A stretch of 64,000 bases of DNA from Cyanosarcina radialis HA8281-LM2 (GTDB taxonomy: Bacteria > Cyanobacteriota > Cyanobacteriia > Cyanobacteriales > CCAP-1448). Where the stretch lies: NCBI GenBank assembly GCA_019359615.1, contig JAHHHA010000033.1, positions 1-64,000 on the forward strand, given 5' to 3'. Numbering within the stretch: position 1 is the first letter of the stretch; the number at the start of each line of letters is the position of its first letter. Both the position numbers and the translations under genes were made by a program. Shown here in pieces: positions 51,019 through 64,000 of the stretch. The notes beneath the pieces were generated by a model that ran no database searches, was not told where the DNA came from, and saw nothing but the letters and a program-made list of their open reading frames with translations.

Positions 51019-53031
51019 GTGGAGAAAGGAACGCTAGTCGAATTTTGGCACAATGGAGAACGCCATCTGGCTGTAGCTGACCGTCCAGAAGGCAAAAAAC
51101 ACTGGATTGCGATCGATGCTAACGGGCAATCCTTTACCCTCCATCCCCGACAAATTAGCTACGAGGTAAGTGGGGAAACCTACAAACCGTCTGAAGTTGA
51201 GAAATTTCAGACAGAAATCCAGCCTTACTTAGACCCAGATAGCTTGGAAGTAGCCTGGGAAATTCTGACAGAAATGGGCGAAACAGCAGATCCGGCCGAG
51301 ATGGCTAACTTGCTGTTTTCCGATCGCCGTCCGGCTTTATGCTACGCTGCTTATTACCTGCTATCGGAAGATAAGGTCTATTTTAAGAATAAGGGCGATC
51401 GCTACGAACCCCGCTCGGCTGCGCAAGTGGCAGAATTAAAACATCAAATCGCCCAACAAGAGCAAAAGCAGCGAGAGCAACAAGAATTTTTGACCCGCAT
51501 CCAGCAACGCCTAGCTGGAGAGCCAGCAGAATGGCAGCCGAGCGATCGCCAGCGATTGGAAGCATTTGAACGCTGCGCCATGCAACCAGAGTTTAATTCT
51601 CGCCCCGTTTTAGAAACTCTGGCAGCTTTAGGACGACCGCAAACCGCAGAAGGTAGCTTTAACTTCTTAGTAGAAATCGGTTGGTGGAGTCCTCACGAAA
51701 ATTTGTTTCTGCGGAGATCGTCCATTCCCGTGCAGTTTCCCCATAAGGTGGTAGAAGTGGCAGTAGCTCTGGTTGATTCCCCGCCGATCGATCGAGATGT
51801 CAATCGCTTGGATTTGACTCATCTCAAGGTTTACACCATTGACGATGAAAGTACCCAAGAAATTGACGATGGGTTGAGCGTAGAACCGCTACCCGATGGC
51901 AGTTATAAATTGTGGATTCACATTGCCGATCCCACTAGATTGCTCTCTCCTGGCGACGATTTAGACTTAGAAGCCCGTCGCCGTTCCACGACGCTGTATT
52001 TGCCCACTGGTATGATTCCGATGTTTCCGCCTCAACTGGCCACCGGGCCGATGAGCTTGATTCAAGGAAACCTTTGTTCGGCGTTGAGTTTTGGGGTGGT
52101 ATTAGATGCCGAGGGGGCAGTACGAGACTACAGCATTCACGCCAGCACGATTAAGCCCACCTATCGCCTCACCTACGAAGATGTCGATGAGATGCTGTCC
52201 CTGGGACTGCAATCGGAAGCCGAAATCGCCGCGATCGCGGATCTGTCTAAACTCCGCCAACAGTGGCGATCGGCTCAAGGCTCGATTAACATTCATATGC
52301 CGGAAGCTTCGATTAAGGTTAATGGCGATGAAATTACCATCAACTTGCTAGAAGACTCGCGATCGCGCCACCTAGTGGCAGAAATGATGATTTTAGCTGG
52401 CGAGGTGGCAGCGCGTTACGGTCAAGAACATAAAATTCCTCTGCCGTTTCGATCGCAGCCGCAACCGGAATTGCCCCCAGAAACGGAATTATTGCAAATT
52501 CCCGCCGGACCTCCTAGAGCTTGTGCCATGCGGCGGTGTATGCCCAAGAGCGAAATGGGAATTAAACCCGCTAGACACGCGGGCTTGGGGCTGGAAACCT
52601 ATACTCAAGTAACATCTCCGATCCGCCGTTACAGCGATTTGCTCGCCCACTTTCAAATCAAAGCTCACCTGCGAGGCGAGGAGTTACCCTTTTCTGCCCA
52701 CCAGTTAGAAGAAATCGTCCAGAGCGTCAGCAGCGCCGCTGCCGAAGCCACTTTAGTAGAGCGTCAAACCAACCGCTATTGGGGGCTGGAATATTTGCGC
52801 CGCCATAGCGAACAGGTATGGCAAGCACTAGTGTTACGCTGGTTGCGAGAAGATGAAGCTTTAGCGTTAATTTTGTTGGAAGAGTTGGGTTTAGAGCTAG
52901 CGATGCGTTGCCAGCGGGCGATCTTTCCAGGCGATCGCTTAGAAGTGCGGGTCAGCCACTCCGATCCGCGTCAAGATGTCATTCATTTGCGAGAAATGGC
53001 TGCTTCTCAACCCCAAGCTGCTGCTACCTAA
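51019..53031 (+). CDS. rnr: RNase II/R-family exoribonuclease
   Basis: 670 residues, a 3'-5' exoribonuclease. The RNB domain (from about 270) has TIDDESTQEIDDGLSVEPLPDGSYKLWIHIADPTRLLSPGDDLDLEARRR with the metal-binding Asp residues, and YTQVTSPIRRYSDLLAHFQIKAHL near the C-terminus. The N-terminal part is shorter than in E. coli RNase R. The only in-frame start fitting the family N-terminus is GTG at 51019 (GTGGAGAAAGGAACG). It follows rpsR in the same direction, an arrangement seen in other cyanobacteria. Confidence 0.92.
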   Translation: MEKGTLVEFWHNGERHLAVADRPEGKKHWIAIDANGQSFTLHPRQISYEVSGETYKPSEVEKFQTEIQPYLDPDSLEVAWEILTEMGETADPAEMANLLFSDRRPALCYAAYYLLSEDKVYFKNKGDRYEPRSAAQVAELKHQIAQQEQKQREQQEFLTRIQQRLAGEPAEWQPSDRQRLEAFERCAMQPEFNSRPVLETLAALGRPQTAEGSFNFLVEIGWWSPHENLFLRRSSIPVQFPHKVVEVAVALVDSPPIDRDVNRLDLTHLKVYTIDDESTQEIDDGLSVEPLPDGSYKLWIHIADPTRLLSPGDDLDLEARRRSTTLYLPTGMIPMFPPQLATGPMSLIQGNLCSALSFGVVLDAEGAVRDYSIHASTIKPTYRLTYEDVDEMLSLGLQSEAEIAAIADLSKLRQQWRSAQGSINIHMPEASIKVNGDEITINLLEDSRSRHLVAEMMILAGEVAARYGQEHKIPLPFRSQPQPELPPETELLQIPAGPPRACAMRRCMPKSEMGIKPARHAGLGLETYTQVTSPIRRYSDLLAHFQIKAHLRGEELPFSAHQLEEIVQSVSSAAAEATLVERQTNRYWGLEYLRRHSEQVWQALVLRWLREDEALALILLEELGLELAMRCQRAIFPGDRLEVRVSHSDPRQDVIHLREMAASQPQAAAT

Positions 53032-53058
53032 TCCTATATCGTATATCGTAATCTTTGA

Positions 53059-53481
53059 TTACAGCGTCCAATCTGCGATCGCCAGTGCGGGGACTAGCCC
53101 AAAATCTCGTTGGTTGCGGGTAACAACTGTAGCATTGAGAGATAAGGCGATCGCTGCTATTCGCATATCTTTTTGCAAGCGATTTTTCCGCAAGGGAGGA
53201 TTCTCTTTCAGCAAGTGCTTGAGACACTCATCAGCTTCTGGTGTGAAGTTCAGTATTTCAACCGTCTGGAAATATTTGACTGTTGTCCAAAGTTTTGAGT
53301 ACAGTGCGAGAAGATTATGCACTGCCGATGGATCGTTGATTTTGCCCATCCAGCCGTTGAAAAGTTCTTGAACCGTAATTACAGTAACAGCAATTTCATG
53401 TAAGGAAGCGTTGGCGACTACTTTGGCATGGTTGTTAAGAATTAGTGAAATATGGTCGGTATCGAGAATGTAGAGAGACAC
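53059..53481 (-). CDS. PIN-domain toxin (VapC-like)
   Basis: 140 residues, complete: MSLYILDTDHISLIL with the first Asp, ISLHEIAVTVITVQELFNG with the conserved Glu, LPLRKNRLQKDMRIAAIALSLNATVVTRNQRDFGLVP with the last Asp residues. It is expected to be an RNase inhibited by the small protein encoded just upstream at 53493-53738, and it is the intact relative of the broken toxin at 8403. Confidence 0.88.
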   Translation of the reverse strand: MSLYILDTDHISLILNNHAKVVANASLHEIAVTVITVQELFNGWMGKINDPSAVHNLLALYSKLWTTVKYFQTVEILNFTPEADECLKHLLKENPPLRKNRLQKDMRIAAIALSLNATVVTRNQRDFGLVPALAIADWTL

Positions 53482-53492
53482 TCAAGCCACCT

Positions 53493-53738
53493 CTACAAGT
53501 AGTATGACTGGTCAACTTCACTGTCATCGTCTGAGGTTCGCTCTGCTCTAATTTCATCCATAATTTCCTGAAAATCTGGATCGTCTTGAAAAACACCAGC
53601 AAATTCCATCCAGCTAGATCGATCGTTTTTTGGTTGCTGCCAATTCATTGGCTGAAAAATCGCAATTTGCTTCTGCAACCGGGCAATCGCTGCTTCTGCT
53701 GCTGCCATCCGTTCTTCTAAAGAAGTATTTGTTTTCAT
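53493..53738 (-). CDS. Coiled-coil antitoxin of the PIN toxin
   Basis: 81 residues: MKTNTSLEERMAAAEAAIARLQKQIAIF (coiled coil), then SWMEFAGVFQDDPDFQEIMDEIRAERTSDD and an acidic C-terminus. The layout equals that of the antitoxin at 8190-8402. The toxin gene follows after eleven bases, so the pair forms one operon. No DNA-binding fold is obvious. Confidence 0.8.
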   Translation of the reverse strand: MKTNTSLEERMAAAEAAIARLQKQIAIFQPMNWQQPKNDRSSWMEFAGVFQDDPDFQEIMDEIRAERTSDDDSEVDQSYYL

Positions 53739-53788
53739 TTGAGTTGCCGTTAATTAAACTAAAGCAGAATAAATAATTATGGTTGTAG

Positions 53789-53810
53789 CCAGGGGTTTTG
53801 AACCCCCTGG
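53789..53810. terminator. CCAGGGGTT/AACCCCCTGG hairpin downstream of the M16 protease
   Basis: CCAGGGGTTTTGAACCCCCTGG forms a nine-base stem with one bulged C and a short loop. It lies 11 bases beyond the protease stop (minus strand) and matches in style the hairpin CCAGAGGTT/AACCTCTGG at 22110. It could be a terminator or a repeat; no T-run follows on the minus strand. Confidence 0.5.
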
Positions 53811-53821
53811 CGATCGCTATC

Positions 53822-56623
53822 TCAAACCGGAGGTCCGGCTGTCACTACTACCAGACGATCGGGATGCAACAACTCTTTAGCCGCTTGATTTACTTGCTCT
53901 GGAGTCACTGCTTGAATCTTACTGGTAAAGTTGCGAATCTCCTCTTTACTGAGTCCGTAAACTCGATCGAGCAGAATCTGAGACACCAAATTATCCGGGT
54001 CTGCTAGCCCGACGTTAAAGCCACTAGCAAGAGAGGCTTTAGCACTATCGATTTCCTCAACAGTCAAACCTCGATCGCGGACTTCCTTTAAAACCCCAAT
54101 GGCGCTAGCGATCGCTTTTTGGGCATCTTGGGGTGCGGTTTGCATGGAAATGAAAAATGGCCCCTCATATCTGCCAGCGGCAAAGACGCTGTAGACCCCG
54201 TAAGTGAGTCCCTGTTCGTCGCGGAGTTTGGTTCCTAAGCGACTCGATAGAGTACCGCCGCCTAACACGTCATTAAGAACTAAAGCCCTGTAGAAGTTAG
54301 GATCTGTCCGCTTGATGCCGTAATAGCCAATGTAAGTCACTGACTGGGTTTTTCCAGGCAAGGCGGGATTGAGTTGCACTATCTTTTCTGGCAGTTTCAC
54401 GGTTGGGTAGTTGGGAACCGTGGCTTTGCCAGCGTTTTTCCAAGTTTCCAACTGGGTTTTCAACAGACTCCGCACTTCTTTAGGATCGAAGTCTCCCACG
54501 ATCGCCAGGGTAGTATTCTGAGGCTGATAGTATTGCTGGCAAAACTTCACCAGATCTTCGCGAGTAATCGCCTTGAGACTCTCTTGAGTGGGGAAGTTAT
54601 AGAAAGGATGATTTTTCGGGTAAACAGCCTGCTGAAACACCCGCCGCCCCAAACGGCGCGGATCGTCTAATTCCACTTTCAAGCCAGTGAGAGCGCGTCC
54701 GCGACTGAGTTCAAACTCGTTTTCGGGAAAAGTAGCGTTTTGGGCGACATCGGCTAACACCTCGACCACAATAGGTAAGTCGGCAGATAAAGCCTTACCA
54801 GAAACCACTACTCCCTCGCGGTTGGCGCTGAAAGACAACCCCGCACCTCGATCGGCTAGAGTTTTAGCGATCGTCAAAGCATCTTTGGTTTCGGTTCCAT
54901 TCATCAAGTTATCTGCCGTCAAACTGGCCAGCCCAGCTTTAGCCGTAGAATCAAATTCCGTCCCGGCTTTGATATATCCCGCCAAAGCTACAGTAGGAGA
55001 GGAGCGATCGGGCAACAACAACACTTTTAAGCCATTGGCCAAACCGATCTCCTCTGGCAATGCTTGAGTGGGCGAACTCGTTTCCGAGTCGAATTTCGGC
55101 AGATATTTGGCCACTTCTGCCGGATCTACAGGCGGCCCGGCATTGAAACCCTCTGTAGTTTGAGTCGGTGCTTTTCCCTCACCGCCAGGTTTCCCAGTAA
55201 TTTGAGTCGGTTCAAAAAAGCCGACAGTGCGCTTTGACTCTGGCAGGTAAGTTTTGGCTACCCGTTGCACGTCAGCAGCTTTTACTTTTTGCACCGCTGC
55301 CAAATAGCGATCGGTAAACCGATAATCGCCAGTAGTGATGAAATCGTTACCTAGCTGTCTGGCTTGGCTGGCAATGTCGCGGCTAGAGAGAATGACGATC
55401 GATTTAACTTGAGCTTGGGCGCGTTTTACCTCTTCGGAAGTCACGCCTTTAGCTTGCAGGTTGGCAATCTCTTTTAAAACCGTGCGATCGATCTCGGCTA
55501 ATTCTTTTCCAGGAACGGCGGTTGCATCTAATTCGTACCACCCGCCAGCCATCAAGTTAGCCGCGCCCCCATCGACATCGCTGGTTAATCCCGATTCGAC
55601 TAAGGCTTGATAAAGCCTAGAACTGCGGCCTTGAGTCAAAATAAAGTTCATCACGTCCAAAGCCGCCACGTCGGGATGCAGAATATCTGGGGCGGGGTAA
55701 ATCGCTTGAAATAAGGAGGCGCTTCCCGGTTCTTTCAACACGATCGGTTTAGAGGTAGAAGGACGACTATCGAGAGTTGATTTCTGGGGCTTATCTCCCG
55801 TGCTGCCCCTCTCTCCTTCTACATTCGGAACTTTGCCGAATAAGTCTTTTACTGTCTTCAGCGTCGGTTCCGTCTCAAAATCTCCCACCACGATCAGCGT
55901 GGCATTTTTAGGGCTGTAGTAGTTGCGGTAGTAACTAGTTACCTGTTCGACCGTAAACTTTTCTACATCTGCCTTAGTTCCTCCTACCGTCAAGCCATAA
56001 GGGTGATCGGGAAATGATGCCCGTTTAACCGCCCGACTCAACCGATAGCCAGGGCTATTTTCATATCCCTGTAACTCCGAAATTACTACCCGCTTTTCGC
56101 TTTCTAGCTTTTCAGCATCGATCGTCGAATTTTGCATTCGATCGGCTTCTAGTTCCAGCAAGGCATTGAGCTTGTTGCGCTCTACCGTGCCGTAGTAGGC
56201 GGTCATGTCGTAGCTAGTGAAAGCATTGGACTCACTACCTAAAGCACTAAACAAGCGTCCGAATTGAATCGGGCGAGTTTTAGTCCCTTTAAAGAGCATA
56301 TGTTCCAGTTGGTGGGCGATACCGTTGACTCCGGGGGCTTCATCGCGGGAACCGATTTTGTACCACACTTGGACGCTGACGACTGGGGCTGTATGTACTT
56401 CTTTCGTCAGTACGGTCATCCCGTTTGAGAGGACGTTTTTTTGTACCCCTTGAGTTAAAGAGATAGATGTTGGTGGTGCTTGAGAATTGACTTCGCGGGC
56501 AAAAGCTGGAATCAACGAGTTATTGCCAGCAAAAACCAATAAAGCGCTTAAAAGCACCGAAAAAAGAAATTTAAAAGCGCGATTTCGGCGCTTGAATGTT
56601 TTCTCGATCGACAATCTTGGCAT
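53822..56623 (-). CDS. Exported M16-family zinc peptidase (two domains)
   Basis: About 933 residues from the Met at 56623, with an export signal (about 10-40: FKFLFSVLLSALLVFAGNNSLIPAFA). The first M16 domain carries the inverted zinc motif HQLEH (IAHQLEHMLFKGT) and the distal Glu (LLELEADRMQN). The second, C-terminal M16 domain lacks the motif, as is usual in one-chain pitrilysin-like pairs. It probably degrades peptides in the periplasm. Downstream genes are not coupled. The start at 56674 would place 17 residues before the signal peptide. Confidence 0.92.
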   Translation of the reverse strand: MPRLSIEKTFKRRNRAFKFLFSVLLSALLVFAGNNSLIPAFAREVNSQAPPTSISLTQGVQKNVLSNGMTVLTKEVHTAPVVSVQVWYKIGSRDEAPGVNGIAHQLEHMLFKGTKTRPIQFGRLFSALGSESNAFTSYDMTAYYGTVERNKLNALLELEADRMQNSTIDAEKLESEKRVVISELQGYENSPGYRLSRAVKRASFPDHPYGLTVGGTKADVEKFTVEQVTSYYRNYYSPKNATLIVVGDFETEPTLKTVKDLFGKVPNVEGERGSTGDKPQKSTLDSRPSTSKPIVLKEPGSASLFQAIYPAPDILHPDVAALDVMNFILTQGRSSRLYQALVESGLTSDVDGGAANLMAGGWYELDATAVPGKELAEIDRTVLKEIANLQAKGVTSEEVKRAQAQVKSIVILSSRDIASQARQLGNDFITTGDYRFTDRYLAAVQKVKAADVQRVAKTYLPESKRTVGFFEPTQITGKPGGEGKAPTQTTEGFNAGPPVDPAEVAKYLPKFDSETSSPTQALPEEIGLANGLKVLLLPDRSSPTVALAGYIKAGTEFDSTAKAGLASLTADNLMNGTETKDALTIAKTLADRGAGLSFSANREGVVVSGKALSADLPIVVEVLADVAQNATFPENEFELSRGRALTGLKVELDDPRRLGRRVFQQAVYPKNHPFYNFPTQESLKAITREDLVKFCQQYYQPQNTTLAIVGDFDPKEVRSLLKTQLETWKNAGKATVPNYPTVKLPEKIVQLNPALPGKTQSVTYIGYYGIKRTDPNFYRALVLNDVLGGGTLSSRLGTKLRDEQGLTYGVYSVFAAGRYEGPFFISMQTAPQDAQKAIASAIGVLKEVRDRGLTVEEIDSAKASLASGFNVGLADPDNLVSQILLDRVYGLSKEEIRNFTSKIQAVTPEQVNQAAKELLHPDRLVVVTAGPPV

Positions 56624-56658
56624 AGTTTCAATTTTGTTTAGCGATCGCGCGAATGCTA

Positions 56659-56684
56659 GTAGAGACGCGAACAAACGTCTCTAC
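56659..56684 (+). repeat. GTAGAGACG ... CGTCTCTAC hairpin with T-run
   Basis: A nine-base stem, GTAGAGACG-CGAACAAA-CGTCTCTAC, followed by TTTTTT (56685-56690). It resembles a Rho-independent terminator read on the plus strand, but there is no plus-strand gene upstream. It belongs to the same family as the palindromes at 15201 and 50588. Confidence 0.7.
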
Positions 56685-56737
56685 TTTTTTATAACTTATC
56701 TGCGATCGCCTAACATTCCACCGAGAGCGCCCGAATT

Positions 56738-57409
56738 CTAAGCTGCTAGTTGGAAGCTATTTCTAGAATTAGATCTGGTGACACTATTGGCATAAATGGC
56801 TAGCTGGGCGCGGTTCTTGAGATTGAGGCGATCGAACAAGTGCGTGACGTGGGTTTTAACCGTTCCTTCTGAAATGTAAAGTCGAGCGGCGATTTCTCGG
56901 TTGGTTAAACCCAAACCGATCGAATGCAATACCTCTTGTTCTCTGGGAGTTAGTTGACTCAGGGTTTGCGAAATAGTCTCTGATTCTGACTCTTCTGGAA
57001 CTTTAGCCATTAACTTTTCTACCAGTCCCGGCCCGAATTGGGCATAACCGCGATCGATCGATCGAATTGCTTGGGCCAACTCTTCGGGAGGCATATCCTT
57101 GAGTAAATAGCCTTTGGCTCCGGCTTGCATGGCATCGGCTACATAGCGATCGTCATCAAAGGTACTTAAAACTAAAACTTTAATCGCAGGAAATTGCTGG
57201 CAGATGGCACGAGTTGCGGCTCTACCATCCATGACGGGCATCCGCACGTCCATCAACACTACATCGGGTTGCAAAGCCTCCACCTGCTGGAGAGCAGCTT
57301 CTCCATTCTCAGCCGTTCCCACGACTTGCAAATCTGCCTCTACCGACAGCATCGCCTTCAGTCCTTGGCAAATTAGAGCTTGGTCGTCTACTAGCAACAG
57401 GCGAATCAT
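56738..57409 (-). CDS. NarL/FixJ-type response regulator
   Basis: 223 residues: receiver domain 1-120 with D8-D9, phospho-acceptor D54 (VLMDVRMPVMDG), KLLS-like LVLSTFDDDRYV and K (AGAKGYLLKDM); C-terminal LuxR-type HTH about 150-210 (LTPREQEVLHSIGLGLTNREIAARLYISEGTVKTHVTHLFDRLNLKNRAQLAIYA). A transcription factor activated by phosphorylation. No kinase is adjacent, so it is an orphan regulator; the orphan kinase at 32860 is too far for a call. Confidence 0.95.
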   Translation of the reverse strand: MIRLLLVDDQALICQGLKAMLSVEADLQVVGTAENGEAALQQVEALQPDVVLMDVRMPVMDGRAATRAICQQFPAIKVLVLSTFDDDRYVADAMQAGAKGYLLKDMPPEELAQAIRSIDRGYAQFGPGLVEKLMAKVPEESESETISQTLSQLTPREQEVLHSIGLGLTNREIAARLYISEGTVKTHVTHLFDRLNLKNRAQLAIYANSVTRSNSRNSFQLAA

Positions 57410-57540
57410 ATTAAAACCCTCGATTTAAAACTTTGGTTGGTATCCCACTATTCAAAATTTAAGTTAACCTTTCAACTTTTACAGCCAGAAAAAGTAAGAA
57501 AAAGTAAGAAGTTGAGAAGAGGAGTTCAGAAGTACCCTAC

Positions 57541-57580
57541 TCTTCGAGAAGCATATCGGCTACGGGAAGGCTTCGCCTAC
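57541..57580. repeat. GCTACGGGAAGGCTTCGCCTAC repeat region
   Basis: CTTCGAGAAGC followed by GGCTACGGGAAGGC and TTCGCCTACAGG, a member of the GC-rich palindromic spacer repeats (AGGC/GCCT, GTAGCC/GGCTAC). Near the ribbon-helix-helix gene. Confidence 0.6.
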
Positions 57581-57678
57581 AGGAGTTCAGGAGGCTCTAT
57601 GCGTGCAATGTGCGTATCCTCTGAGTATAATATGCGTATAATTTACTCAAAAATTAAGTAATTATCAGGAAAATTTTA

Positions 57679-57882
57679 ATGTCTCGCGTGAATTTTGATG
57701 TTTCGCCAGAACTAGACGAGACGATTAACAAGCTAGTCAAACTTACAGGAAGTGCCTCTAAAAGTGAGTTACTTCGGAGGGCGATCGCTTTGATGAAGGT
57801 TGCGGTAGAAGCTAAGTACGAAGGCAGGAAGATAGTCATCGCCGAGAAGGACAGAACTCCTGTGGCAGAAGTCATAATTTGA
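57679..57882 (+). CDS. Ribbon-helix-helix protein (CopG-like antitoxin)
   Basis: 67 residues: MSRVNFDVSPELDETINKLVKLTGSASKSELLRRAIALMKVAVEAKYEGRKIVIAEKDRTPVAEVII. The first strand (SRVNFDVS) and the helices with SKSELLRRAIAL are an RHH DNA-binding domain; the tail is short. It resembles antitoxins of type II modules, but no toxin gene follows, only the start of a lipoprotein gene on the other strand. It may be a solitary antitoxin or a regulator. Confidence 0.75.
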   Translation: MSRVNFDVSPELDETINKLVKLTGSASKSELLRRAIALMKVAVEAKYEGRKIVIAEKDRTPVAEVII

Positions 57883-57924
57883 ACCGATGACAAATCCTCC
57901 TCAGCCATCCAAAGCAGTAGAAAC

Positions 57925-58320
57925 CTAACCTTGAACTTGGGAAAATTGTTGTAGCTTTCCAGTGGCATCAAATATCAAACGGAACTCATCGATGTCGATC
58001 GAGTATCCACAGCGCCCCAAAGCATATCCAAGAGTCCGCTCCTGTTTCAGAGTGAAATCAGGTTTACCCAAGATCTCGATGACTTCATCCTCGCTCATTC
58101 CTATACGCAGATGATTTTTCATCAGATCTTCGACCATGTTACATCGAGGCCCGTTGCCTTTCTCGTCTAAGGTAGCCTGTTTCCAAGTCTGCGATCGAAA
58201 TGTGGCATTGCTGCTTTGAGCGCCGTTAAAGAACTGACATCCTGTGGCGATCGTAGTTATTAATGGTACGAGTAAAACAGCAATAATTAACCATTTATTT
58301 AACTGAAAGTTCGATCGCAT
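57925..58320 (-). CDS. Lipoprotein with a BamE/SmpA-like fold
   Basis: 131 residues. A signal peptide of the lipoprotein type (about 10-30, LLVPLITTIATGCQFF) with C28 as the lipidated cysteine, then MSEDEVIEILGKPDFTLKQERTLGYALGRCGYSIDIDEFRLIFDATGKLQQFSQVQG, the pattern of the SmpA/OmlA (BamE-like) fold. In other bacteria BamE is part of the outer-membrane assembly complex; here the sequence alone does not show the role. Confidence 0.78.
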   Translation of the reverse strand: MRSNFQLNKWLIIAVLLVPLITTIATGCQFFNGAQSSNATFRSQTWKQATLDEKGNGPRCNMVEDLMKNHLRIGMSEDEVIEILGKPDFTLKQERTLGYALGRCGYSIDIDEFRLIFDATGKLQQFSQVQG

Positions 58321-58379
58321 TTTTAGTTAATGTTTAGTTTAGTTACTGGGCAGGCATTGCCTAATCTCAATATTAACTA

Positions 58380-58736
58380 TTAAGCCTTTCCACTTCTAAT
58401 GAGCCAACCAATTACGCCCCCGATCGTACCGCTGAAAATCGAACTGATGACACCAGTAACAAAAATTAAGCCAATTTGCTTCCAGTTTTTTAACTCTCCT
58501 ACTTTCTCTGCTAGCTCGGGCATTTTTTGAATTAAAGGTTCGAGAGTAGTTAGCTTGGTCTTTACTTCCATCATCTCCATCTGTAAGGTTTGCTGCCCAG
58601 CTTGTAAGGTTTGCTGCCCAGCTTGTAAGGTTTGCTGCCCAGTTTCAAGAACTTTTATTCGGTCTTCAACAGCATCGAACCGCTTGTTAATGATATCTTC
58701 TAACCTTTTCAGGTCGCTTCCAGTAATAGCCGCCAT
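58380..58736 (-). CDS. Coiled-coil membrane protein with a tandem-repeat core
   Basis: 118 residues. A coiled-coil N-terminus (LKRLEDIINKRFDAVEDRIKVLE) leads into GQQTLQAGQQTLQAGQQTLQ (three units of seven residues from a 21-bp DNA repeat) and then a second coiled coil. Near the C-terminus is one hydrophobic helix (about 88-112: IGLIFVTGVISSIFSGTIGGVIGWLI). A tail-anchored coiled-coil protein of unknown function. Confidence 0.65.
   Translation of the reverse strand: MAAITGSDLKRLEDIINKRFDAVEDRIKVLETGQQTLQAGQQTLQAGQQTLQMEMMEVKTKLTTLEPLIQKMPELAEKVGELKNWKQIGLIFVTGVISSIFSGTIGGVIGWLIRSGKA
58583..58642. repeat. 21-bp tandem repeat within the coiled-coil gene
   Basis: Nearly three identical copies of a 21-bp unit (TGTAAGGTTTGCTGCCCAGC plus T). 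They are read as the heptads AGQQTLQ. Since 21 bp is a multiple of three, changes in copy number would keep the frame and lengthen or shorten the coiled coil by one heptad. Confidence 0.9.
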
Positions 58737-58817
58737 AGTCTAATTTGCTTAGATATAAAATCTTTAACTCGGATCTTAACTCCTCTGCTAGGAGATTAGT
58801 TTTATTATCCCTAATAA

Positions 58818-60795: not shown

Positions 60796-60901
60796 ATTAA
60801 TTACTTTGCCAAAAGCCGAAGATATAGTTGATATAAAAAGAACCCTGGATTTCATGTTTAAAGCAGGTGTGATTAATTTTGGTATCTCCTGCTAGCCAAA
60901 T

Positions 60902-60916
60902 ATCCCAAAATAGGAT
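60902..60916 (+). promoter_or_regulatory. Candidate operator ATCCCA-AAA-TAGGAT upstream of the methylase
   Basis: ATCCCA AAA TAGGAT is an imperfect inverted repeat (one mismatch) 43 bases upstream of the methyltransferase start. An almost identical, perfect version stands upstream of the controller gene at 63250-63264. The shared sequence at both arms of the locus suggests a binding site for the controller protein. Confidence 0.55.
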
Positions 60917-60959
60917 AAAGTGGCAGATAGCTAATTTTTGAAGCTATGAAAACCCGTAC

Positions 60960-62048
60960 ATGAATCGATTCAATCTAGAGGAAGGGCTTCCTAAACCACT
61001 CAAACATAAAGCTACTAGTACAGTTGGTCGCGGAAAAGTGGTTAATCTCAATACTAACTTCAACTTCTCTTCCTGGAGCGACGAATATGTGACTCTACAC
61101 TTGGGTGATAGTCTTCAACATTATGACAACTGGGAGCAACCTACTGTCATAATCTCGGATGGAGCTTACGGTGTTCTTGGTTTTGAAGGGGATACTTCAA
61201 GCCATATTGATTTGCCAAATTGGTATGAACCTCACATTGAGACATGGTCAGGAGCCGCAAAGCCATGCACAACACTCTGGTTTTGGAATTCAGAGATTGG
61301 TTGGGCGGTTGTACATCCAGTTTTAGAAAAGTACGGTTGGCGCTACGTCAACTGCAATATTTGGAATAAAGGAAAAAGCCACATTGCAGGGAATGTGAAC
61401 ACAGAAAAAATTCGTAGGTTCCCTGTGGTGACAGAAGTTTGCGTTCAGTATGTGAGGGAAGTTAAAGTCAACGAACTTCCCTTAAAAGCGTGGTTGCTGG
61501 AAGAGTGGAAACGTTCTGGGCTACCATTACGACGAGCGAACGATGCTTGTGGTGTAGTAGATGCTGCCACCAGAAAATATTTCGATCGAGGGCATTTGTG
61601 GTATTTCCCTCCTCCAGAGATGTTTGAAAAACTAGTCAAGTATGCAAACGAGCATGGGAAACCTGAAGGGAAACCTTACTTTTCACTTAATGGCGATCGC
61701 GCTTTGACTGGAGAAGAATGGAGAAAGATGCGATCGAAATTCAAATGTCCTCACGGATTTACCAATGTCTGGGAACGTCAAGCTCTGCGAGATGATGAGC
61801 GGGTTAAGACTTCCTCTGGAAAAGCTTTGCATCTTAATCAGAAGCCTTTAGACTTAATGAAAACTATTATTGAGACATCAAGCGATCCAAGTGATGTAAT
61901 ATGGGAGCCTTTTGGCGGACTATTCAGTGCATCTTTTGCTGCACGTCAACTAAGTCGAAAAGCTTTCTCTTGCGAGCTTGACCCAGATTACTTCTACTAT
62001 GGGGTACAAAGATTTACTCAAGAAGTTCATCAATACTCTCTTCTTTAA
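60960..62048 (+). CDS. DNA methyltransferase (N4-cytosine/N6-adenine class) of a type II R-M system
   Basis: 362 residues. The catalytic motif IV appears as IISDGAYG (S66-D67-G68-A69-Y70), an unusual relative of DPPY/SPPY. Motif X is HLNQKPLDLM, and the SAM motif I is near the C-terminus, VIWEPFGGLFSASFAARQ with EPFGG at 316-320, so the order (IV, then X and I) is that of beta-class enzymes. It should protect the DNA at the site recognised by the neighbouring nuclease. It is convergent with that gene (35-base overlap of ends). It lies downstream of a candidate controller operator at 60902. Confidence 0.82.
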   Translation: MNRFNLEEGLPKPLKHKATSTVGRGKVVNLNTNFNFSSWSDEYVTLHLGDSLQHYDNWEQPTVIISDGAYGVLGFEGDTSSHIDLPNWYEPHIETWSGAAKPCTTLWFWNSEIGWAVVHPVLEKYGWRYVNCNIWNKGKSHIAGNVNTEKIRRFPVVTEVCVQYVREVKVNELPLKAWLLEEWKRSGLPLRRANDACGVVDAATRKYFDRGHLWYFPPPEMFEKLVKYANEHGKPEGKPYFSLNGDRALTGEEWRKMRSKFKCPHGFTNVWERQALRDDERVKTSSGKALHLNQKPLDLMKTIIETSSDPSDVIWEPFGGLFSASFAARQLSRKAFSCELDPDYFYYGVQRFTQEVHQYSLL

Positions 62049-62931
62049 TGCCTAGATACTCCTGCAAGGATTTCCTGAGTTTATCTTCTCGACGGCTTGA
62101 CAAAAGTTTGTTCCATTGTGCGGCAGTCATACCGGAAACGGTAGTGCTGTAGACACGTTGCTTAAAGTCTTCAATCCCTGGGTGTACAATTCTGTCCATC
62201 TTCGCAAAGTTAGTATCCAGTCTGTATTCATACCGCACTCGTAACTCACGCAGAAGACGCTGATATGCTCTAGTTGGCTGATAGATTTTTCCTTCCACTC
62301 CCCATGAATCAACTATCCTCTGAGCTTCTAATAATTCCTCAGCAGAACCTTGAAACTTATAACCACTAGTGTTTGTCTGTTGCAAATTGGCTGTTCTCTG
62401 CGTCGTATCTTCTGGTTCTAAGACAAGGTAGTCTGGTGGATTATGATAATGGGTGTCTCTAGCTACAGCTACGGATAGACCAGAAACAACACACACGTCG
62501 AGAATCCGAGGTTTACCGTAGATGATTCTATCGGGAAGCCAGGCCAAAATAGCAACATAGGTTCGATCGAAGCTGAAATGATTTTGACTGTCTTTAAAGC
62601 GTGCTGTTATTTCTGTCGCCAATGGGAACCATGCCTTAACCTCTAATCCTGGTGTTGGTTGGACACTGCCTATAAAAACTGTATCTGGAAAGCCTGGATC
62701 TTGTCTCTGCCATTTTCCAAATTCAGCAAATTCATCTTTTTTATTCAAAAATTCAACGGTGTTAAATTCAATTAAGTTACCAAGCAGTGGTGAAAGCTTT
62801 GAGATGACCTTGGACAAGTTTATGGCTGCATCCACAGTTACAGGCTTGGAGACATCAAGAACATCAAAAGTGTGACCTGATAAGTCGCTCAAATATTGTG
62901 AGGCAAGTCTGATTACGTCCTGTGTATTCAT
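62014..62931 (-). CDS. Type II restriction endonuclease candidate
   Basis: 305 residues, of a family I cannot name. It has a PD-(D/E)xK signature, DPGFPDTVFIGSV ... GLEVKAW with D83, E97 and K99, and a long hydrophilic C-terminal part. Its position, convergent with the methylase and 4 bases overlapping the controller gene (ATGA at 62928-62931), strongly suggests it is the nuclease of the same R-M system. The recognition site is not deducible from sequence. Confidence 0.75.
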   Translation of the reverse strand: MNTQDVIRLASQYLSDLSGHTFDVLDVSKPVTVDAAINLSKVISKLSPLLGNLIEFNTVEFLNKKDEFAEFGKWQRQDPGFPDTVFIGSVQPTPGLEVKAWFPLATEITARFKDSQNHFSFDRTYVAILAWLPDRIIYGKPRILDVCVVSGLSVAVARDTHYHNPPDYLVLEPEDTTQRTANLQQTNTSGYKFQGSAEELLEAQRIVDSWGVEGKIYQPTRAYQRLLRELRVRYEYRLDTNFAKMDRIVHPGIEDFKQRVYSTTVSGMTAAQWNKLLSSRREDKLRKSLQEYLGIKEESIDELLE

Positions 62932-63191
62932 GCTTTGTCTTCACAGGGCTTTTCAGGCATTTCCTGTTCGACCTCTCTGATAATGTCGCAAGGAGCTATA
63001 CCAATTGCACGGGCAACCAAAATAAACTCGATCGCATCTAAGCGCCGTTCACCACTCTCGTATTTAGCTACGAAAGATTGTGGTTTATTAAGAAATTTAG
63101 CTAATGTTGCTTGAGTTAACTGTGCCTCTTTACGAGCCACAATCATTCGACGACGGAATATGTCATACCCACTGCTAAAGACAGATTTCAT
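62928..63191 (-). CDS. R-M controller protein (XRE-type helix-turn-helix)
   Basis: 87 residues: FRRRMIVARKEAQLTQATLAKFLNKPQSFVAKYESGERRLDAIEFILVARAIGIAP. This is a Cro/C1-type HTH protein of the size and position of C (controller) proteins, which delay nuclease expression until methylation is complete. The nuclease gene begins inside its stop codon region (4-base overlap), so the two are translationally coupled. A perfect ATCCCA-AAA-TGGGAT repeat lies 59 bases upstream. Confidence 0.83.
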   Translation of the reverse strand: MKSVFSSGYDIFRRRMIVARKEAQLTQATLAKFLNKPQSFVAKYESGERRLDAIEFILVARAIGIAPCDIIREVEQEMPEKPCEDKA

Positions 63192-63249
63192 TGTGCTTCG
63201 GACTTAGCACTGCATAATATCTCCAACACAATAAACCTGTTTTCGGATA

Positions 63250-63264
63250 ATCCCAAAATGGGAT
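63250..63264. promoter_or_regulatory. Candidate controller operator ATCCCA-AAA-TGGGAT
   Basis: A perfect 6-3-6 inverted repeat lying upstream of the controller-nuclease operon (minus strand) and shared, with one mismatch, with 60902-60916 ahead of the methylase. The spacing of 59 bases to the ATG is right for a promoter-region site. Confidence 0.6.
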
Positions 63265-63391
63265 ATTGCTGCTGATTAAGTTTAGTAATCACGCAGCCCA
63301 ACAAGTCGATGAAGCAAACGGACGAGAGATCTTGGTGGTGTTGCAGAGTTTATCTGTGTCTGGAGCCTCCCGCGTCCCCTCTCTGGTTGTT

Positions 63392-64000
63392 TCATTTAGC
63401 CAGTACATCCCGCAATGCCCCGATCGCAGGAGCGAAAAAGTAGCCGCCTCCGGTAGGAATTACCCAATCTACAGGAGTTTCAATCTCCTCGATCGAACCA
63501 TCTGTGCCTTTGAATTTCAACTTCCGAGTCCGACTTCCGGCTTGATTTTGCTGGCCGATAATCGGATCGACACCAGCATTAGGCGGATTGGGTGGGGGCT
63601 GATCTGGTTGATTGACCCAAGTTCCCGTCACGAATTCAAACTGTTCTTTAATCGAGGTTTGATAAGAAAGAAACATCAATCCTCGCTCCTCCTGCAACTC
63701 TTCGGGAGTGGGATTGCTGGCATCTTTCATCGGAGAACCAAATACAATCCCACGACGCAGAATTAAGCGAGTCAAGGTTTTATTCCCCGCACCTGACTCG
63801 GTGGCCATATCTCGTGGGTTAACTTTACGAATATGAGCGAAAAAGGGGCAAATATTCCCTAAAGAGTCGCCAGGAGATGAGGGAAAGCGATCGCCTGGAT
63901 AATCTGGAATTGTAACGGCTAGGGGTTCTGGTGTGGAATCGACGTACAGGAAATAATTGTTAGCCACACTGTCTTGTCCTAACGATGCGTTCTCGCTATT
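63392..64000 (-). CDS. DyP-type peroxidase, C-terminal part
   Basis: The frame is open from the window edge and continues beyond it; the visible 202 residues are the C-terminal part of a dye-decolorising peroxidase. Seen: CPFFAHIRKVNPRDM with the proximal heme-ligand His, TLTRLILRRGIVFG, ERGLMFLSYQTSIKEQFEFVTGTWVNQPDQP and GVDPIIGQ. The N-terminal half with the GxxDG motif would be outside the window. The Pro-rich insertion (PPPNPPNAG) is notable. DyPs are heme peroxidases of the cytoplasm or secreted by Tat. Confidence 0.88.
   Translation of the reverse strand, partial: NSENASLGQDSVANNYFLYVDSTPEPLAVTIPDYPGDRFPSSPGDSLGNICPFFAHIRKVNPRDMATESGAGNKTLTRLILRRGIVFGSPMKDASNPTPEELQEERGLMFLSYQTSIKEQFEFVTGTWVNQPDQPPPNPPNAGVDPIIGQQNQAGSRTRKLKFKGTDGSIEEIETPVDWVIPTGGGYFFAPAIGALRDVLAK

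What the first reader, a model, noticed from the sequence alone, without database searches (positions are those of the whole stretch)
60902..63264. Shared operator at both arms of a restriction-modification locus
ATCCCA-AAA-TGGGAT (63250-63264) and its one-mismatch form (60902-60916) lie upstream of the controller-nuclease operon and the convergent methylase. Such a common site would let one controller protein time both genes, the expected logic of C-protein R-M systems, here with a convergent layout and a sequence I do not know as a C-box.
Basis: partly seen in the sequence, partly recalled or inferred. Interest (0 to 1): 0.65.

Follow-up and report, generated by a model that had tools for sequence, protein, structure and literature searches.

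The report
Shared operators of a restriction-modification controller
In this cyanobacterium, a small regulator of a DNA-cutting defence system has three matching docking sites, two at its own promoter and one at the protective methylase gene; the same protein-and-site pairing recurs in many bacterial groups, so the sites are almost certainly how it sets the balance between cutting and protection.

Summary
They form operator OM (60901-60917) before the methylase and tandem operators OL (63249-63265) and OR (63233-63249) before the controller-nuclease operon. The 17-bp family consensus, with at most one mismatch, occurs nowhere else in the 6.5-Mb genome. Homologous cassettes in many phyla keep these sites. 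A motif trained only on cyanobacteria finds them upstream of 17/19 non-cyanobacterial controller genes versus 0/21 controller-less loci, and upstream of 12/17 versus 1/22 methylases. The same layout occurs in an unrelated R-M system and in a controller-nuclease fusion. Operator sequence covaries with one recognition-helix residue (Thr: TAGTC..GACTA in 7/7; Pro: mostly a CC/GG core). This supports direct control by the 87-residue protein. The logic is that of Esp1396I (convergent; OL, OR, OM), so the layout is known; the operator is not the GACT/AGTC or CTAAG/CTTAG box. Inferred promoters put OL on the -35, OR between -35 and -10, and OM in the methylase core promoter, predicting repression at both arms rather than activation-led timing. 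No binding or expression was tested, and the ten-motif catalogue of C-boxes could not be read.

The parts
60901..60917 (+). Operator OM, TATCCCAAAATAGGATA (perfect outer arms), 42 bp before the methylase ATG
   Evidence: conserved at about the same distance in most cyanobacterial relatives
60893..60921 (+). Inferred methylase core promoter: TAGCCA (60893-60898) - N17 - TAAAGT (60916-60921), OM in the spacer
   Evidence: inference; the same arrangement is clearer in relatives (TTGACA-N17-TAGGAT in L072 and L075; TTGCCA-N17-TATTAT in L151)
60960..62048 (+). M: beta-class N6/N4 DNA methyltransferase, 362 aa
   Evidence: PF01555 E 5e-16; PADLOC MTase_II
62014..62931 (-). R: type II restriction endonuclease, 305 aa, PD(82-83)...E97-x-K99 invariant in relatives
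   Evidence: PADLOC REase_II PDLC03583 E 3e-46; alignments; AlphaFold2 model pLDDT 87, weak fold matches mostly to HincII/SwaI/EcoRV/NlaIV
62928..63191 (-). C: 87-aa XRE/HTH_3 controller, stop overlaps the R start; recognition helix P37-QSFVAKYESGERR
   Evidence: PF01381 E 3e-9; nearest PDB 3f6w, 3eus, 2ef8; C.AhdI 1y7y and C.BclI 2b5a only marginal
63233..63249 (-). Operator OR (weaker), TATCCGAAAACAGGTTT
   Evidence: OL and OR are 15-17 bp apart in all 37 controller promoters examined
63249..63265 (-).
63228..63256 (-). Inferred controller promoter: -35 TTGGGA (63251-63256, inside OL), N17, -10 TATTGT (63228-63233)
   Evidence: same offsets give TTGGGA-like/TA...-like hexamers in most of 37 loci; in L065, L067, L037 and L079 the C ATG follows the -10 by 6 nt, which suggests a leaderless start

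Best explanation
The locus is a three-gene type II R-M cassette under a C-protein-like controller. A controller dimer binds a 17-bp palindrome, consensus TATCC-N7-GGATA with an A/T-rich centre. It has one site in the methylase promoter (OM) and two adjacent sites (OL strong, OR weaker, 16-bp step) in its own promoter, which also transcribes the nuclease. Shown: sequence, positions, genome-wide uniqueness, conservation, dependence on presence of the controller, and covariation with its recognition helix. Inferred: the sites lie inside the core promoters (OM in the -35/-10 spacer of M; OL over the -35 and OR in the spacer of C-R). Bound controller would therefore block RNA polymerase at both arms: it turns methylase down once established and caps controller and nuclease by cooperative autorepression. 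OM has the best palindrome, so M would respond at the lowest controller level. Whether OL also activates before repressing, as in Esp1396I, is open; I put repression only at about 0.6 and an activating step at about 0.3.
For: Only two genome-wide matches to the family consensus at <=1 mismatch, both here. Tandem OL/OR upstream of C in cyanobacterial and non-cyanobacterial relatives. A cyanobacteria-trained motif finds sites upstream of 17/19 non-cyanobacterial C genes versus 0/21 upstream of R in C-less loci (Fisher 2e-9), and upstream of 12/17 versus 1/22 M genes (1.7e-5). Same layout in R-M systems whose R does not align to this R: L151 (OL, OR, OM; OM inside TTGCCA-N17-TATTAT) and C-R fusion L153 (OL, OR, OM). 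Recognition-helix residue 37: Thr with TAGTC..GACTA in 7/7, mostly CC/GG core with Pro; the Thr form occurs in two separate lineages. Promoter hexamers peak at the same offsets from OL in cyanobacteria and others; C ATG 6 nt after the -10 in four relatives.
Against: No binding, footprint, transcript start or expression data. Methylase promoter hexamers in the window are weak (4/6 each), and the -35 of the C promoter is partly dictated by the operator itself. Some controller-bearing relatives lack a recognisable OM (L057, L064, L079, L098, L101; Planktothrix-type L032). In cyanobacteria a second downstream -10-like hexamer (TATTAT in the window) would put OR near a -35, the classical activating geometry. 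The loci are related, so the Fisher values overstate independence.
Confidence: 0.82

Rival explanations
1. Same sites and same controller, but classical activator-then-repressor switching as in Esp1396I and PvuII: OL activates the C-R promoter, OR represses it, OM represses M.
For: Same site set and convergent layout as Esp1396I; OL better than OR as in that system; a TATTAT hexamer downstream in the window could serve a C-dependent promoter with OR near its -35 (sequence).
Against: In PvuII and Esp1396I OR overlaps the -35; here the conserved geometry places OL there and OR in the spacer, and in four relatives the C start codon leaves no room for a second downstream promoter.
Confidence: 0.3
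2. The palindromes are boundary repeats or target-site marks of a mobile R-M cassette rather than operators.
For: They bracket the three genes in the window.
Against: They keep a fixed distance to start codons, not to a junction; there are two on one side; in divergent relatives they lie between M and C (L026-L031); they occur before controllers with no R-M neighbours annotated, such as L165.
Confidence: 0.03
3. The sites belong to an unrelated host regulator that happens to control this locus.
For: None specific.
Against: Only two good sites in the genome, presence tracks the cassette's own controller across phyla, and site sequence covaries with that controller's recognition helix.
Confidence: 0.03
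4. Chance palindromes.
For: The loose 15-mer with 3 mismatches is barely enriched in the window.
Against: Extended motif expected 0.16 strand-matches per window, found 3; conservation and co-occurrence tests.
Confidence: 0.01

Closest known systems
Esp1396I R-M system with controller C.Esp1396I (PMC4041747, PMC3758141)
   Same: Convergent C-R operon and M gene; three operators OL, OR, OM; small HTH controller; M expected to be repressed through OM.
   Different: Its C-box is GAC..GTC around TATA, here TATCC-N7-GGATA; there OR overlaps the -35, here (inferred) OL does and OR lies in the spacer; known C proteins in the PDB (C.AhdI, C.BclI) are only marginal sequence matches.
C.Csp231I / C.EcoO109I class (PMC4321490, PMC4824078)
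   Same: Non-GACT palindromes with an A/T-rich centre, two before the C gene.
   Different: Half-site CTAAG with a 5-bp gap and an 18- or 25-bp spacer between operators; here TATCC with a 7-bp gap and adjacent operators.
Kpn2I (PMC6237814)
   Same: Controller acts negatively, repressing the methylase and limiting itself.
   Different: Kpn2I limits its own gene by an elongation roadblock inside the coding region, with M and C divergent; here the sites are in core promoters.
EcoRV R-M system (described in PMC6237814)
   Same: Divergent relatives L026-L031 share one operator pair between M and C; in EcoRV the high-affinity C site likewise overlaps the M promoter.
   Different: Its operator sequence could not be compared here; the window itself is convergent.
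PvuII-type C-R fusions (PMC3850674)
   Same: Cyanobacterial C-R fusion proteins also occur among the relatives found here (L140, L147).
   Different: Those reported carry PvuII-type C boxes; these carry the TATCC operator.

Membership tests
C-protein-controlled type II R-M system | Small XRE/HTH gene directly upstream of and co-oriented with the REase gene | tested here: met
   C stop overlaps R start; HTH_3 E 3e-9
C-protein-controlled type II R-M system | Type II REase and methylase present together | tested here: met
   PADLOC REase_II E 3e-46, MTase_II E 5e-19; PD..ExK invariant
C-protein-controlled type II R-M system | Paired operators upstream of the C gene | tested here: met
   OL and OR, 16-bp step in the window, 15-17 bp in 37 loci
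C-protein-controlled type II R-M system | Controller binds the operators and alters transcription | not testable with these tools
   only indirect: co-occurrence and covariation
Esp1396I-like organisation | Convergent M with its own single operator OM | tested here: met
   OM 60901-60917, conserved in most relatives
Esp1396I / C.PvuII C-box class | GACT/AGTC-type C-box | tested here: not met
   operator is TATCC-N7-GGATA
Esp1396I / C.PvuII C-box class | OR overlaps the -35 of the C-R promoter | tested here: inconclusive
   inferred promoter puts OL on the -35 but no start site is mapped
C.EcoO109I / C.Csp231I class | CTAAG-N5-CTTAG operators separated by 18-25 bp | tested here: not met
One of the ten C-box motif groups of Sorokin et al. 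2009 | Operator matches one of the published motifs | not tested
   paper not held in the library

The most novel reading that the evidence does not exclude
A C-box class not yet described, TATCC-N7-GGATA (with a TAGTC..GACTA branch), shared by several unrelated R-M families across many phyla, including C-R fusions and a streptococcal phage, whose operators lie inside the core promoters. The controller would then set the methylase/nuclease balance by repression alone, without the activating step of classical C proteins, and one recognition-helix residue (Pro/Thr 37) would switch its target sequence.
Probability: 0.35. Interest if true: 0.65.

Novelty: new variant of a known kind. Interest (0 to 1): 0.48.

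Why it matters
Type II R-M systems must methylate a new host before they cut it, and C proteins are the textbook way of timing this. A widespread controller-operator pair outside the C.PvuII and C.EcoO109I prototype boxes, with operators apparently placed for repression at both arms, would show that the balance can be set without self-activation. It gives a ready set of homologous promoters and natural operator/helix variants in which recognition and timing can be tested.

Tried and rejected
Cassette-boundary or target-site-duplication reading: rejected, sites track start codons and there are three. Chance: rejected by genome count and conservation. A leader hairpin before the C start codon (GTGCT..AGCAC in the window) looked conserved by eye, but consensus folding gave no pairs. 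A first motif test used a null contaminated by the operators themselves and was replaced by shuffles. An automatic palindrome picker chose neighbouring arms in some loci (for example L039, L043, L047, L052, L076, L121); these are picker errors seen. The target sequence of the nuclease was not found: Foldseek matches are weak (best E 5e-3). Attempts to read Sorokin 2009 and the 2003 Esp1396I paper failed.

Full report
OBSERVATION. Counted as a loose 15-mer the motif is unremarkable (14 matches at <=1 mismatch in 6.5 Mb). Extended to 17 bp it is not: TATCC-N7-GGATW gives three strand-matches at two places in the window against 0.16 expected, and the family consensus TATCCYAWWWTRGGATA with <=1 mismatch occurs in the whole genome only at these two places. 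The gene layout is as described: M (+) and C-R (-) converge, with a 35-bp overlap of the M and R ends.

GENES. M has a PF01555 N6/N4 methylase domain. R has no Pfam hit but matches a PADLOC type II REase model (E 3e-46), keeps an invariant PD...ExK signature across 25 aligned sequences, and gives an AlphaFold2 model of pLDDT 87 whose weak Foldseek matches are mostly restriction enzymes. C is an 87-aa HTH_3 protein; its nearest solved relatives are uncharacterised XRE proteins 3f6w and 3eus and the putative transcription factor 2ef8, while C.AhdI and C.BclI are marginal.

A THIRD OPERATOR. Upstream of C the site is double. On the gene strand the sequence is TATCCCATTTTGGGATT followed, 16 bp on, by TATCCGAAAACAGGTTT, that is OL (63249-63265) and OR (63233-63249). 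In 37 controller promoters from cyanobacteria, proteobacteria, Acidobacteria, Chloroflexi, Planctomycetes and others the best pair is 15-17 bp apart. M has one operator, OM, usually about 40 bp before the start codon in cyanobacteria.

IS IT THE CONTROLLER'S SITE? Three tests. First, co-occurrence: a motif trained on cyanobacterial sites only was applied to other phyla. It finds sites (p <= 0.01 against shuffles) upstream of 17 of 19 controller genes but 0 of 21 R genes that lack this controller, and upstream of 12 of 17 versus 1 of 22 methylases. Several controller-less loci carry a different HTH protein before the same R (L068, L070, L089, L100, L107). Second, transfer: relatives of C in other cyanobacterial R-M systems whose nucleases show no similarity to this R have the same arrangement. 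L151 has OL, OR and OM, with OM between TTGCCA and TATTAT; the C-R fusion L153 has OL, OR and OM; the fusion L154 and the system L152 have OL and OR but no convincing OM. Third, covariation: among 83 controller-like proteins the residue aligned to Pro37, at the start of the recognition helix, goes with the half-site. Thr goes with TAGTC..GACTA in 7 of 7 (cyanobacterial divergent R-M systems and Methylosinus plasmids, two separate lineages). Pro goes mostly with a CC/GG core (TATCC, AATCC, AACC), the exceptions including picker errors and a few genuine outliers such as L203. The other recognition-helix difference in the cyanobacterial group (Tyr to Cys) does not track the site, since L149 and L205 have Cys with TATCC.

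HOW IT PROBABLY WORKS. At a fixed offset from OL, most loci have a TTGGGA-like -35 (inside OL) and, 17 bp on, a -10-like hexamer: TATTGT in the window, TATTAT, TATCAT, TATAAA or TATAAC elsewhere. In L065, L067, L037 and L079 the C ATG follows that -10 by 6 nt, which fixes the promoter and suggests a leaderless message, a trait reported for C genes (PMC4824078). OL then covers about -44 to -28 and OR about -28 to -13. In PvuII and Esp1396I it is OR that overlaps the -35, with OL upstream and activating. The one-operator shift argues that binding here blocks polymerase. OM also lies in the core promoter of M (clear in L072, L075 and L151; weak hexamers in the window). I therefore favour repression of both arms, with M most sensitive because OM is the best palindrome. 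This is inference: no start site, binding or expression was measured, and in cyanobacteria a second downstream promoter that would restore the classical geometry cannot be excluded.

COMPARISON AND NOVELTY. The architecture is that of Esp1396I: convergent C-R and M, OL/OR/OM. The convergent layout is therefore known. The operator differs from the GACT/AGTC class and from CTAAG-N5-CTTAG. The main catalogue of predicted C-boxes (Sorokin et al. 2009) was not readable, so I cannot say the motif is unpublished. Relatives of this XRE family also occur outside R-M systems with similar sites (L165) or different ones (L161, L163), so the operator class belongs to an XRE subfamily, of which R-M controllers are a part. 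Overall: a well-supported C-protein operator set, a new variant of a known kind.

Noticed in passing
L068, L070, L089, L100, L107 upstream of R: The same R-M pair is preceded in these loci by a different HTH protein (RTYI..ERG.RNISL-like signature, resembling the C.PvuII type from memory), suggesting the controller has been swapped during evolution.
   Followed up: partly
L140 / L153 (384-1262) and L147 / L154 (404-1273): Controller fused to a C-terminal domain of about 210 aa (putative REase, no family match), with a convergent N6/N4 methylase and TATCC-type operators.
   Followed up: partly
L026-L031: Relatives with about 47-50% identical R mostly have a divergent M / C-R layout with one TAGTC..GACTA operator pair between the genes.
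   Followed up: yes
L167 (Streptococcus phage YS225, record 52531-58743): A phage carries a divergent methylase, a relative of C and an ORF with a PD..ELK motif, with operator-like sites between them: probably a phage-borne R-M system.
   Followed up: partly
L016, L032, L034, L050, L051, L012/L045: Decay series: a Planktothrix-type lineage lost OM and variously C or R; UBA11370 (L012/L045) lost C but keeps OM.
   Followed up: partly
L025/L038 (Nostoc sp. UHCC 0870 plasmid): R gene split, with two transposase-family ORFs lying between its parts; C and M remain.
   Followed up: no
window 63392-64000: Part of a DyP-type peroxidase-like protein (PF20628, weak) running off the window end.
   Followed up: no
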